From positions 1,726,056 through 1,790,055 of the forward strand of contig NC_067304.1 in the NCBI RefSeq assembly GCF_020740795.1: DNA of 64,000 bases, read 5' to 3'. Both the position numbers and the translations under genes were made by a program. The DNA is from Apus apus. Its lineage: Eukaryota; Chordata; Aves; Apodiformes; Apodidae. The notes under the pieces were generated by a model. It was not told the DNA's origin. It saw nothing but the letters and a program-made list of their open reading frames with translations, and did no database searches. Positions 17,144 to 24,446 of this stretch are shown one piece after another; positions within the stretch are counted from its first letter, which is position 1; each line of letters begins with the position of its first letter.

Positions 17144-17470
17144 TCACGTCGCCCAGTTCAAGAGGCTGCTGCTGGTGGCCTCTTTGCTCTTCATCCTCAG
17201 CGGCACCAGGGGGGGCGACTTGTAGTCGTGTTCGGCTGCTGGTTCGAAGGGGTGGGGGCCCAAGGCCGGGGGGGGCAGAGGGTGTAGGGAATAGAGGCTG
17301 TTGATGCCGGGATGGGAACCGGGAGAAGCGGGGAGACCCACGAAGCTGGGGATGTTGTGGGTGTGGGGGTACGGGGACATGCAAGGGGGGCTGGGGATGC
17401 TCTCGGTGGGGGGGGGCAGGAGCCCCCCAGGGCTGCCGGGGCTGGAGTTTGGCCACAGGTTGTTCTGCAG
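17144..17470 (-). CDS. ALX3: ALX3 coding exon 4 (C-terminal tail, OAR motif)
   Basis: Acceptor ctcttttcttccag|CTGCAGAAC gives [16 protein letters not shown], matching human LQNSLWASPGSGSPGG. This is followed by the CMSPY motif, a Pro/Ser-rich stretch, the OAR-type [16 protein letters not shown] and the final LLNWAT. 108 residues plus TGA at 17146-17144. The GSPGG/CMSPY/LLNW signature separates it from ALX1 and ALX4. Confidence 0.93.
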
Positions 17471-23400: not shown

Positions 23401-24446
23401 TGAGGGAGCGGGATGCACCGGGAGTCCCGGGAGCTGGGGAGCCGGATGCACCGGGAACAGGGATGCAGCGGGAGTCCCGGGAGCTGGATGCACGGGGAAA
23501 AGGGCACCAGGGAGGATGCACCGGGAACCCCAAGAGCCGGACACCGGGTTTTACCGGCAGCGGAGCACCGGGGAGTGGGTTGCACTGGAAGCCGGGCACT
23601 GGGGAGCCCGGGACGCTGGCAACGGGGAACCGGGAGCCCCGCGGCCAGGACTCGCCAGGCCGGGAATCCCGGGCCCGTCTGTGCCACCGTTTGCTCCCGC
23701 CTGTCCCTGCACGGTGAGTCCTGGATGCCCTTTTCCAGGTTCTTCCGAGGGACGGGGCCTGTCCCTACCCCGGGGAACGGGCTCCGAGCCCGTCAGGACC
23801 CGCCGTTCCTCGGCCCGGGCCGGTCCCCGCCGTCGCGGCAGCGGGGCCGGGTCCCTCCCGGAGCATCTTCTCCCCCTTTTCTCCCCCTTTCCCTATTTCT
23901 GGAGGCCGGGAATGATCGTGGAGACCTCGGTGTCTTGTCGCGACACAGCCTCGGCTCCCCGGCCCTTGCCTGTCCCGTCGGGGGATGCCCTGGTGCTCCG
24001 ACCGGGCCATATCGCGACAGCGGCCGCTTCGGTGAACCCGGTCGGCGAGAGGACGCTTTGAGGAAGGGGGGAAATCAGGCGTGGGGGGCCCCAGCAGACC
24101 CCTCGGGCGGGGGTAAAGGAGGAGGAAAGAGAAGCAGAAGGGAGCGGGAGGGGGTCGGTGGCCCCGGTCCCCCCATCCACCCGCCGCTCGCCCCGGTACC
24201 TGCAGCCCCGGCCGGATAAAAGGGCTTCCCATGGACGGCCGCGGTGGGGGTGCCCGGGTTGGTGACCCCCAGGAACCGGGATTCTGCTTTGTCCGGTGGA
24301 CAACGGGCCGGGCGGGGACTGAGCGGCGGCGGGTGACGGGGGGGACCCGGTGGAGCGATGGTGAAAGCGATGGGAGGCCGAGGGAGTCCCGGGGGGGGTC
24401 CGGCCCGACGTGGCGGGGGGAAAGGCGGGCAGTCCGGTGCCTCCAT
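17144..24446 (-). CDS. ALX3: ALX3, aristaless-like homeobox 3 (complete, 4 exons, ~314 aa)
   Basis: Nuclear paired-class (Q50) homeodomain transcription factor; ALX proteins bind TAAT palindromes and pattern craniofacial mesenchyme. Coding exons on the - strand: 24446-24200, 20370-20063, 18884-18822, 17470-17144 (247+308+63+327 = 945 nt, 314 residues plus TGA). Phases 1, 0, 0 agree and all junctions are GT-AG. The start ATG has a strong context (GCGCCATGG), and MEAPDCPPF aligns with mammalian MDPEHCAPF. The homeodomain spans about residues 140-199, with the typical intron between positions 46 and 47. The C terminus has [29 protein letters not shown] (OAR-like) and ends LLNWAT, as in ALX3 and unlike ALX1/ALX4 (ISWA-). 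Its position next to STRIP1 matches human. Oddity: about 22 residues after the homeodomain (the [14 protein letters not shown] segment) are missing in frame. Identification is very likely; expression is not shown. Confidence 0.93.
17500..18420. repeat. C-rich ~60-bp minisatellite in ALX3 intron 3
   Basis: Tandem units built from 'ggatccctctttactccccc', 'aggatcctccttgatccccc' and 'aggatccccattccccc', with variable C runs. About 14 units, each rich in GGATCC sites. It fills most of intron 3 between exons 4 and 3 and creates a long spurious Pro-rich ORF on the + strand. Confidence 0.9.
18421..18821 (-). other. ALX3: ALX3 intron 3, non-repetitive part
   Basis: G-rich on the + strand with several G runs. 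I read the complementary strand for the missing [12 protein letters not shown] segment and found none. The donor gtgagg is at the right end. Confidence 0.6.
18822..18884 (-). CDS. ALX3: ALX3 coding exon 3 (63 bp, shortened)
   Basis: Acceptor ccccccag|GTCTGGTTC and donor CAGGAG|GTGAGG bound exactly 21 codons, [21 protein letters not shown]. This completes homeodomain helix 3 (Q50, N51). By family knowledge the equivalent exon is 43 codons in ALX1, ALX4 and mammalian ALX3, continuing through the [11 protein letters not shown]..PQ-type segment. That segment is absent here and I do not find it in the next 1.3 kb. Confidence 0.88.
18885..20062 (-). other. ALX3: ALX3 intron 2
   Basis: About 1.18 kb between homeodomain positions 46 and 47. 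GC-rich, with C and G runs near 19,200 and 19,730. It holds a T/A-richer part at 19,020-19,150. No repeat family or ORF recognised. Confidence 0.7.
20063..20370 (-). CDS. ALX3: ALX3 coding exon 2 (first 46 homeodomain positions)
   Basis: Acceptor ccccatggcag|GC joins the phase-1 exon 1 end to make Gly, giving AAG-SEKGG. The linker before the homeodomain is poorly conserved. Then [16 protein letters not shown]...LTEARVQ is essentially identical to mammalian ALX3, with Glu for Asp in RTELTEAR. Donor GTGCAG|GTGGGG. Confidence 0.95.
21750..22340. promoter_or_regulatory. Candidate intronic enhancer in ALX3 intron 1
   Basis: AT-rich, non-repetitive island in otherwise very GC-rich DNA. TAATGATTAA occurs exactly twice, at 21,961-21,970 and 22,043-22,052, along with GAATTAACGG (21,860) and CAAATTACC. 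Inverted TAAT cores are the site type bound by paired-class homeodomains, so autoregulation is possible. Function is inferred. Confidence 0.4.
22985..23565. repeat. GC-rich composite minisatellite in ALX3 intron 1
   Basis: Repeats of 'gatgcaccgggagtcccggg', 'agctggggagccggatgcac' and 'gggaacagggcctgagggag' in varying order, about 30-65 bp per unit. It opens several long spurious ORFs on both strands. Almost all units carry CpG and CCCGGG sites. Confidence 0.9.
23936..23945. promoter_or_regulatory. Palindrome TGTCGCGACA, second copy
   Basis: Identical to the core of the 14-bp palindrome at 14,167-14,180. A near copy (TATCGCGACA) lies at 24,010-24,019. All three sit in CpG-rich sequence. Confidence 0.35.
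24200..24446 (-). CDS. ALX3: ALX3 coding exon 1
   Basis: Encodes residues 1-82 plus one base: a Pro-rich N terminus ending [11 protein letters not shown], before donor GCTGCAG|GTACC. The ending aligns with the FYEGPAEAEEK region of human ALX3. The reading frame is open for another 180 nt upstream, but the MEAPDC start is preferred for its Kozak context and its alignment. Confidence 0.85.

What the first reader, a model, noticed from the sequence alone, without database searches (positions are those of the whole stretch)
17144..24446. Complete ALX3 homeobox gene in an apparently avian genome
Seen: four exons on the - strand with matching phases (1, 0, 0), GT-AG junctions, an intact Q50 homeodomain with the 46/47 intron, an ALX3-type C terminus (IPSP.CMSPY, DYKSP.LV.LR.K.KE, LLNW.T) and STRIP1 as tail-to-tail neighbour. 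Known: as I recall, comparative work (McGonnell and colleagues) described independent losses of Alx3 in several vertebrate lineages, birds among them. Inference: ALX3 was not lost in all birds. It survives here, and at least some reported losses may be assembly gaps in extremely GC-rich DNA. ALX3 shapes facial mesenchyme, so retention matters for beak and skull evolution.
Basis: partly seen in the sequence, partly recalled or inferred. Interest (0 to 1): 0.9.

Follow-up and report, generated by a model that had tools for sequence, protein, structure and literature searches.

The report
Swift ALX3 gene, shortened third exon
The window holds an intact copy of the face-patterning gene ALX3, most likely from the common swift; that birds keep this gene was already known, but the bird copies examined share a shortened third exon that drops a protein segment kept in turtles, most mammals and the sister genes.

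Summary
Observation confirmed. A tree places it in ALX3 (100/100), in a set of nine Neoaves (100/99). STRIP1 is tail to tail; SLC6A17 starts about 49 kb upstream. The genome matches Apus apus, the common swift; ALX1 and ALX4 lie elsewhere in it.

The novelty claim fails. McGonnell 2011 reported loss in chicken, Anolis and Xenopus, but found Alx3 in zebra finch. The capped hit lists hold 49 bird clusters from 46 species, five of them galliform. The chicken loss, still cited in 2026, looks doubtful; no chicken genome could be searched.

Apparently unreported: exon 3 has 63 nt, against 129 in the swift's ALX1 and ALX4. It stops at an internal donor, so a 22-residue tail (YDI core) is gone. The core is in 0 of 47 readable bird ALX3s, but in 4/4 turtles, 30/30 readable eutherians, 49/60 fish; ALX4 keeps its version in 116/116. 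Birds probably fixed the short isoform.

The parts
24200..24446 (-). ALX3 exon 1 coding part (start ATG at 24446; 247 nt)
   Evidence: P0002 starts with the same Met-Glu-Ala-Pro
20063..20370 (-). ALX3 exon 2 (308 nt; homeodomain up to residue 46)
   Evidence: homeodomain match 1-46 at C24:1746115-1746252
18822..18884 (-). ALX3 exon 3, shortened (63 nt; [21 protein letters not shown])
   Evidence: ALX1 and ALX4 of the same genome have 129 nt here
18816..18824 (-). Exon-3 donor GAG|GTGAGG, at the place where V-R is coded in long forms of fish and a marsupial
   Evidence: 7 of 9 consensus positions
18756..18821 (-). 66 nt where the rest of exon 3 would lie: now intronic, 58% C, no YDI or LPR, no GT at its far end (GT at offsets 0, 17 and 78 only)
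17144..17470 (-). ALX3 exon 4 (327 nt with stop; LQNNLW, CMSPY, divergent OAR-like end)
435..13644 (+). STRIP1 (FAM40A) exons, tail to tail with ALX3; the first exons lie outside the window or were not matched
   Evidence: tblastn with a recalled human STRIP1, matched from residue 60

Best explanation
This is the ALX3 orthologue of (most likely) the common swift, a working paired-class (Q50) homeodomain transcription factor. By analogy with mouse and human ALX3 it should act in frontonasal neural-crest mesenchyme with ALX1 and ALX4, binding TAAT-type palindromes as a dimer (recalled from the family; inferred, not shown). Retention in birds is ordinary. What is distinctive is the protein form. 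Bird ALX3 appears to end exon 3 at a donor inside the ancestral exon, so the conserved post-homeodomain tail ([12 protein letters not shown] type, 22 residues) is not made. Ancestrally both donors were probably used: among fish rows and among the two marsupial rows both forms occur, and valine (GTN, which supplies the GT) sits at the junction of their long forms. Birds lost the distal donor and the tail decayed. Eutherians, monotremes and turtles lack the proximal GT and show only the long form.
For: Intact gene, tree, synteny. ALX1 and ALX4 at other places in the genome. DNA-level control in the same genome: ALX1 exon 3 ends ...YPQ|GTATTG and ALX4 exon 3 ...YAQ|GTGAGC, both 43 codons by my count; ALX3 ends after 21. 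Tail core (pattern [TSAP][YF][DEN][IL]) in 0 of 47 readable bird rows (27 join directly to LQ, or LH in Colius; 20 have a filler whose first letter is V; 2 of the 49 were unreadable); present in 4/4 turtles, 30 of 31 eutherians (the 31st was not parsed, but its printed sequence has it), 2/2 monotremes, 1/2 marsupials, 49/60 fish incl. coelacanth and lungfish; ALX1 4/4 (YDI) and ALX4 116/116 (YEL). Short forms outside archosaurs: 11 fish and 1 marsupial, groups whose long forms all have V (50 of 50); none in the 36 readable rows with G (30 eutherians), A or S (4 turtles, 2 monotremes). YDI and PR are among the few invariant columns outside the homeodomain in 19 long forms that I chose (17 ALX3, 2 ALX1). 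The tail is not found elsewhere in intron 3 or convincingly in the window.
Against: No RNA was available, so the splice is inferred. The protein rows are mostly gene predictions taken from capped best-hit lists, not a random sample. 20 of 47 bird models carry a filler instead of the direct join, NCBI models among them, and 4 of the 5 galliform rows do. No species was shown here to have both forms of one gene; the order of events rests on predicted isoforms in different species. A few salmonid and pike long forms keep YDI or YNI but not LPR, so the tail is not untouchable elsewhere. The archosaur extension rests on one alligator record named 'isoform A', so a long alligator isoform may exist. 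The structure model of a turtle long form was of low confidence (mean pLDDT 48.5; tail blocks about 47-56) and gives no function for the tail. The closest protein hit is a cormorant (86%), not the hummingbird row (76%) expected to be nearer to a swift.
Confidence: 0.85

Rival explanations
1. Some or all birds read through into former intron: the real bird protein has a fast-changing, lineage-specific filler in place of the tail, not a direct join. (The conserved tail is lost either way.)
For: 20 of 47 readable bird models have such a filler, all starting with V; NCBI models are among them (e.g. P0021, P0034, P0046, P0047).
Against: The fillers share little beyond the first V; 27 models including ostrich, rhea and king quail join directly; in the swift the frame meets a stop at codon 39 after the donor, and GAG|GTGAGG fits the donor consensus at 7 of 9 positions. 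Both kinds come from automated models.
Confidence: 0.15
2. The tail was lost by one damaging change (loss of the distal donor) and a cryptic donor took over; no ancestral alternative splicing was involved.
For: The distal donor position in the window is gone; the isoforms in fish and marsupial are predictions, and no species was seen here with both forms of one gene.
Against: Short forms occur in 11 of 60 fish rows (9 of them named isoform X2 or X3) and in a marsupial row named isoform X2, in groups where V supplies GT, and in none of 36 readable rows with G, A or S there.
Confidence: 0.25
3. A decaying relic of ALX3 without function in birds.
For: Reported chicken loss; ALX3 branches are longer than ALX4 branches in birds and the galliform stem is long (0.33).
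Against: Frame and splice sites intact; homeodomain consensus of 47 birds identical to the human row over 59 residues; the other invariant islands (Q..W, C..PY, LR, KE, W) are present in the window protein.
Confidence: 0.03
4. Mis-assigned ALX1 or ALX4, or a non-avian contig.
For: None found.
Confidence: 0.01

Closest known systems
Bird ALX3 in NCBI/UniProt (e.g. Phalacrocorax aristotelis P0001, 86% identity)
   Same: Same gene, same short exon-3 join, same C-terminal blocks
   Different: Species; no Apus apus ALX3 appears among the 120 best hits (candidates of about 173-549 aa), so the swift gene may be unannotated in those sources
Turtle, mammal and fish ALX3 (e.g. Eretmochelys P0036, Homo P0104, Lepisosteus P0059)
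   Same: Homeodomain, Q.N.LW, C..PY and terminal LR.K.KE..W blocks
   Different: They carry the 22-residue tail with YDIS.LPR after the homeodomain
Swift ALX1 and ALX4
   Same: Paired-class Q50 homeodomain, intron 46/47, exon 3 and 4 layout
   Different: Exon 3 of 129 nt with the tail; Pfam lists OAR for the ALX1 and ALX4 rows; separate clades in the tree
Echinoderm Alx1 Domain 2 (Khor and Ettensohn 2017, PMC5758115, passages)
   Same: Similar in layout: the segment after the homeodomain can be switched by an internal splice site of the same exon (sea star)
   Different: There a new domain was gained by exonization; here a conserved tail was lost to the intron. No sequence relation is claimed

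Membership tests
ALX3 orthologue | Groups with ALX3, apart from ALX1 and ALX4 | tested here: met
   100/100 support, 43 rows (29 named ALX3, 10 ALX4, 3 mammal ALX1, window; 42 chosen from 270 records)
ALX3 orthologue | Between STRIP1 (FAM40A) and SLC6A17 | tested here: met
   STRIP1 435-13644 +; SLC6A17 at window-scale 73060-85842 + (C24:1799115-1811897)
ALX3 orthologue | Q50 paired-class homeodomain with 46/47 intron | tested here: met
ALX3 orthologue | C-terminal blocks C..PY, LR.K.KE, W near the end | tested here: met
ALX3 orthologue | Post-homeodomain tail with YDI core (usual in ALX genes, but not required: bird ALX3 rows lack it) | tested here: not met
   absent in 47 of 47 readable bird rows, so a lineage variant and not a bar to orthology
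ALX family | OAR domain | tested here: inconclusive
   No Pfam OAR hit at E up to 10; a divergent OAR-like end is visible. The Pfam column lists only the homeodomain for the ALX3 rows shown
Working transcription factor | Expression and DNA binding in facial mesenchyme | not testable with these tools
   No RNA or binding data

The most novel reading that the evidence does not exclude
Vertebrate ALX3 began with two isoforms set by two donors of exon 3, and lineages resolved this in opposite ways: birds (perhaps all archosaurs) kept only the short protein and let a segment shared by ALX1, ALX3 and ALX4 decay into intron, while eutherians, monotremes and turtles mutated the proximal GT and kept only the long one. 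Bird facial development therefore runs on a structurally different ALX3, and the claimed chicken loss is probably an artefact of this divergence plus GC-rich assembly gaps.
Probability: 0.5. Interest if true: 0.6.

Novelty: new variant of a known kind. Interest (0 to 1): 0.4.

Why it matters
It corrects the starting claim: ALX3 in a bird was reported in 2011 and is annotated in dozens of species. It turns two open points into direct tests. First, a 2026 chick study left ALX3 out because the gene is 'lost' in chicken, and a 2020 study built a hypothesis on that loss, yet turkey, ptarmigan, two quails and a pheasant have models of it. Second, the bird ALX3 rows seen here lack a segment that ALX1, ALX4 and most other ALX3 rows have kept, so it predates the split of the paralogues; the loss looks like fixation of one splice form. 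The residue after KIQE (V or not) should predict which species can make the short isoform.

Tried and rejected
ALX1/ALX4 mis-assignment: rejected by tree and by finding both genes elsewhere in the genome. Non-avian contig: rejected. Tail moved to a separate exon: no Y[DE][IL] or LPR in any frame of intron 3, and only weak matches elsewhere in the window. Structure of a long form to guess the tail's role: low confidence, no fold search made. AHCYL1 as a further synteny marker: no match in the window nor in 30 kb to its left or 80 kb to its right. Chicken ALX3: no Gallus row seen among the 120 listed hits, but each cluster shows only one or a few names, so absence is not shown.

Papers: the listings showed no paper on exon 3 or isoforms of bird ALX3 (one search listed 12 of 17, one search listed 30 of 45). 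Only passages of five papers were read.

Mended on recheck: the tail count is of its core (YD/E/N-I/L), not of the full YDI..PR, which ALX4 and a few fish lack; one search gave 48 long fish rows because its pattern missed one (YNIS), one search gives 49. Both isoforms were seen within groups, not within one species. NCBI models are among the filler rows, so I raised the read-through rival from 0.10 to 0.15 and lowered the main confidence from 0.88 to 0.85. Rows not parsed: P0013, P0039 (birds) and P0097 (a bat whose printed sequence has the motif).

Full report
What is there. On the - strand, exons at 24446-24200, 20370-20063, 18884-18822 and 17470-17144 join to a 945-nt frame encoding 314 aa, with GT-AG introns and phases 1, 0, 0. 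Pfam finds one family above its cut-off, Homeodomain, 83.2 bits; the best solved relatives are ALX4 homeodomains (2m0c, E 9.4e-36). The homeodomain differs at one of 59 residues from the consensus of the 47 of 49 bird rows that have it in full, and that consensus equals the human and turtle ALX3 rows compared.

Which gene and which animal. A maximum-likelihood tree of 43 rows (window, 29 named ALX3, 10 ALX4, 3 mammal ALX1; 42 chosen by me from 270 fetched records) puts the window in ALX3 (100/100), in the bird clade of 16 rows (100/100) and in a set of nine Neoaves (100/99) whose inner order is not resolved. STRIP1 exons lie tail to tail at 435-13644, and SLC6A17 begins about 49 kb beyond the ALX3 start, at window-scale 73060-85842. 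McGonnell et al. place Alx3 between these two genes. The genome has 1.10 Gb in 110 contigs; the window's contig, C24, is 6.88 Mb, and many bird ALX3 rows also come from contigs of 6-9 Mb. Contig C6 has 66,458,660 bases, the same as the contig listed for Apus apus ALX4 (P0246), and its ALX4 exon 2 is 100% identical to that protein over residues 160-238. I conclude that the window is from the common swift. Against this, the nearest ALX3 protein is a cormorant's (86%) and not the hummingbird's (76%); the hummingbird row was not in the tree. ALX1 exons are on C1 and ALX4 exons on C6, so ALX3 is a third, separate gene.

Is it news that a bird has it? No. In the passages of PMC3166657 that I read, loss is claimed for chicken, Anolis and Xenopus, and the authors write that they found Alx3 in zebra finch in the appropriate syntenic region. 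The capped lists show 49 bird clusters from 46 named species (46 clusters called ALX3, 3 unnamed or hypothetical), from ostrich, rhea and kiwi to songbirds, with five galliform genera (Meleagris, Lagopus, Excalfactoria, Coturnix, Chrysolophus). Chicken, turkey and Japanese quail are all Phasianidae, so a real chicken loss would have to be fairly recent. A 2026 paper still says that Alx3 could not be studied in chick because it is lost there (PMC13249048, passages); a 2020 paper repeats the loss (PMC7116175, passages). I could not search a chicken genome. The galliform stem is long (0.33, 100/100), which would make the gene harder to find by similarity.

What is unusual. The window's exon 3 codes only [21 protein letters not shown] and stops at GAG|GTGAGG. 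In the swift's own ALX1 and ALX4 the same exon has 43 codons: 21 like these and 22 more ([22 protein letters not shown] and [22 protein letters not shown]), then a donor (codons counted by me). In ALX3 the following 66 nt are 58% C, hold no such motif and have no GT at their end; intron 3 has no Y[DE][IL] or LPR in any frame of its strand. The absence is therefore in the DNA of this assembly and not only in gene models.

How wide is it? I counted the tail's core (pattern [TSAP][YF][DEN][IL] within 20 residues of the junction). Of 49 bird rows, 47 have a readable homeodomain end: 27 join straight to LQ (LH in Colius), 20 have a filler that shares little but always starts with V, and none has the core. 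Of the five galliform rows, one joins directly and four have a filler. NCBI models are found in both sets. The core is present in 4 of 4 turtles, 30 of 31 eutherians (the other was not parsed but shows it in print), 2 of 2 monotremes, 1 of 2 marsupials and 49 of 60 fish rows including coelacanth and lungfish. The one alligator row is short; the one tuatara row starts VRNPFTTTY and then departs. ALX1 4 of 4 have YDI, ALX4 116 of 116 have YEL-type cores. A few salmonid and pike rows keep YDI or YNI but lack LPR. In 19 long forms that I chose (17 ALX3, 2 ALX1), YDI and PR are invariant, among few columns outside the homeodomain. Duck, goose and swan fillers (VRNPTAAH...) look like a worn remnant of VRNPFTAAYD (inference).

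Why it happened. The residue after KIQE decides whether a GT exists there, since valine codons are GTN. Long forms have V in 49 of 49 fish rows and in the one long marsupial, but G in 30 of 30 readable eutherians, A or S in 4 of 4 turtles and A in 2 of 2 monotremes. Outside birds and the alligator, short forms occur in 11 fish rows, 9 of them named isoform X2 or X3, and one marsupial row named isoform X2, and in none of the 36 rows without GT. The simplest reading is an old pair of alternative donors, resolved to short in birds and to long in eutherians, monotremes and turtles. Shown: the DNA in the swift, the distribution in these protein records, the link between V and short forms. Inferred: that the splice is used in vivo, that both forms were ancestral (both forms of one gene in one species were not shown), and any effect on function. 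The alligator record is called 'isoform A', so a long form may exist there; the archosaur-wide claim is weak.

How it works. As a Q50 paired-class factor it should bind TAAT-type palindromes and act with ALX1 and ALX4 in frontonasal crest; human ALX3 mutations cause frontorhiny (both recalled; the passage of PMC7719703 seen lists frontorhiny mutations just before its alx4 row, with the gene label out of view). The tail's role is unknown; an AlphaFold model of a turtle ALX3 left it without structure at low confidence. A useful parallel is echinoderm Alx1, where Domain 2, between the homeodomain and the C terminus, is essential for skeletogenic function, is alternatively spliced and in a sea star can be skipped by an internal splice site (PMC5758115, passages). 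It is an analogy, not a homology.

Verdict. Observation confirmed; gene right, organism avian as guessed; headline already known; the shared short exon 3 of bird ALX3 appears unreported as far as the listings searched go (two of them listed only part of their hits).

Noticed in passing
window 28337-45068, 60157-60780, 63111-63957: Dense run of tandem arrays between ALX3 and SLC6A17, with an island of 9-30% GC at about 29.0-35.0 kb while the rest of the window has about 47-70% GC per kb.
   Followed up: no
window 17560-18421: Minisatellite with units of 21 to 128 nt (GGATCC..GGGGG type) fills about two thirds of ALX3 intron 3.
   Followed up: no
window 17144-24446: No Apus apus ALX3 among the 120 best protein hits, though Apus ALX4 is held; the swift gene may be unannotated in those sources.
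   Followed up: partly
proteins P0043, P0046, P0047, P0110: The four galliform ALX3 rows in the tree sit on a long stem (0.33, 100/100): faster change in the chicken's order.
   Followed up: partly
protein P0098 (tuatara): Exon-3 tail starts VRNPFTTTY, then departs from the motif; possibly an independent decay or a model error.
   Followed up: no
ALX4 rows; C6 region: All 116 ALX4 rows have V at the matching place (CAG|GTCCGG in swift), so a short ALX4 isoform is possible in principle.
   Followed up: no
window about 61825-62175 (- strand): Open frame with a CR1-like ending ([13 protein letters not shown]; motif recalled), a typical bird retroelement.
   Followed up: no
proteins P0013, P0039: Pterocles model unreadable at the homeodomain; Chloebia model skips exon 3 altogether: likely model errors.
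   Followed up: no
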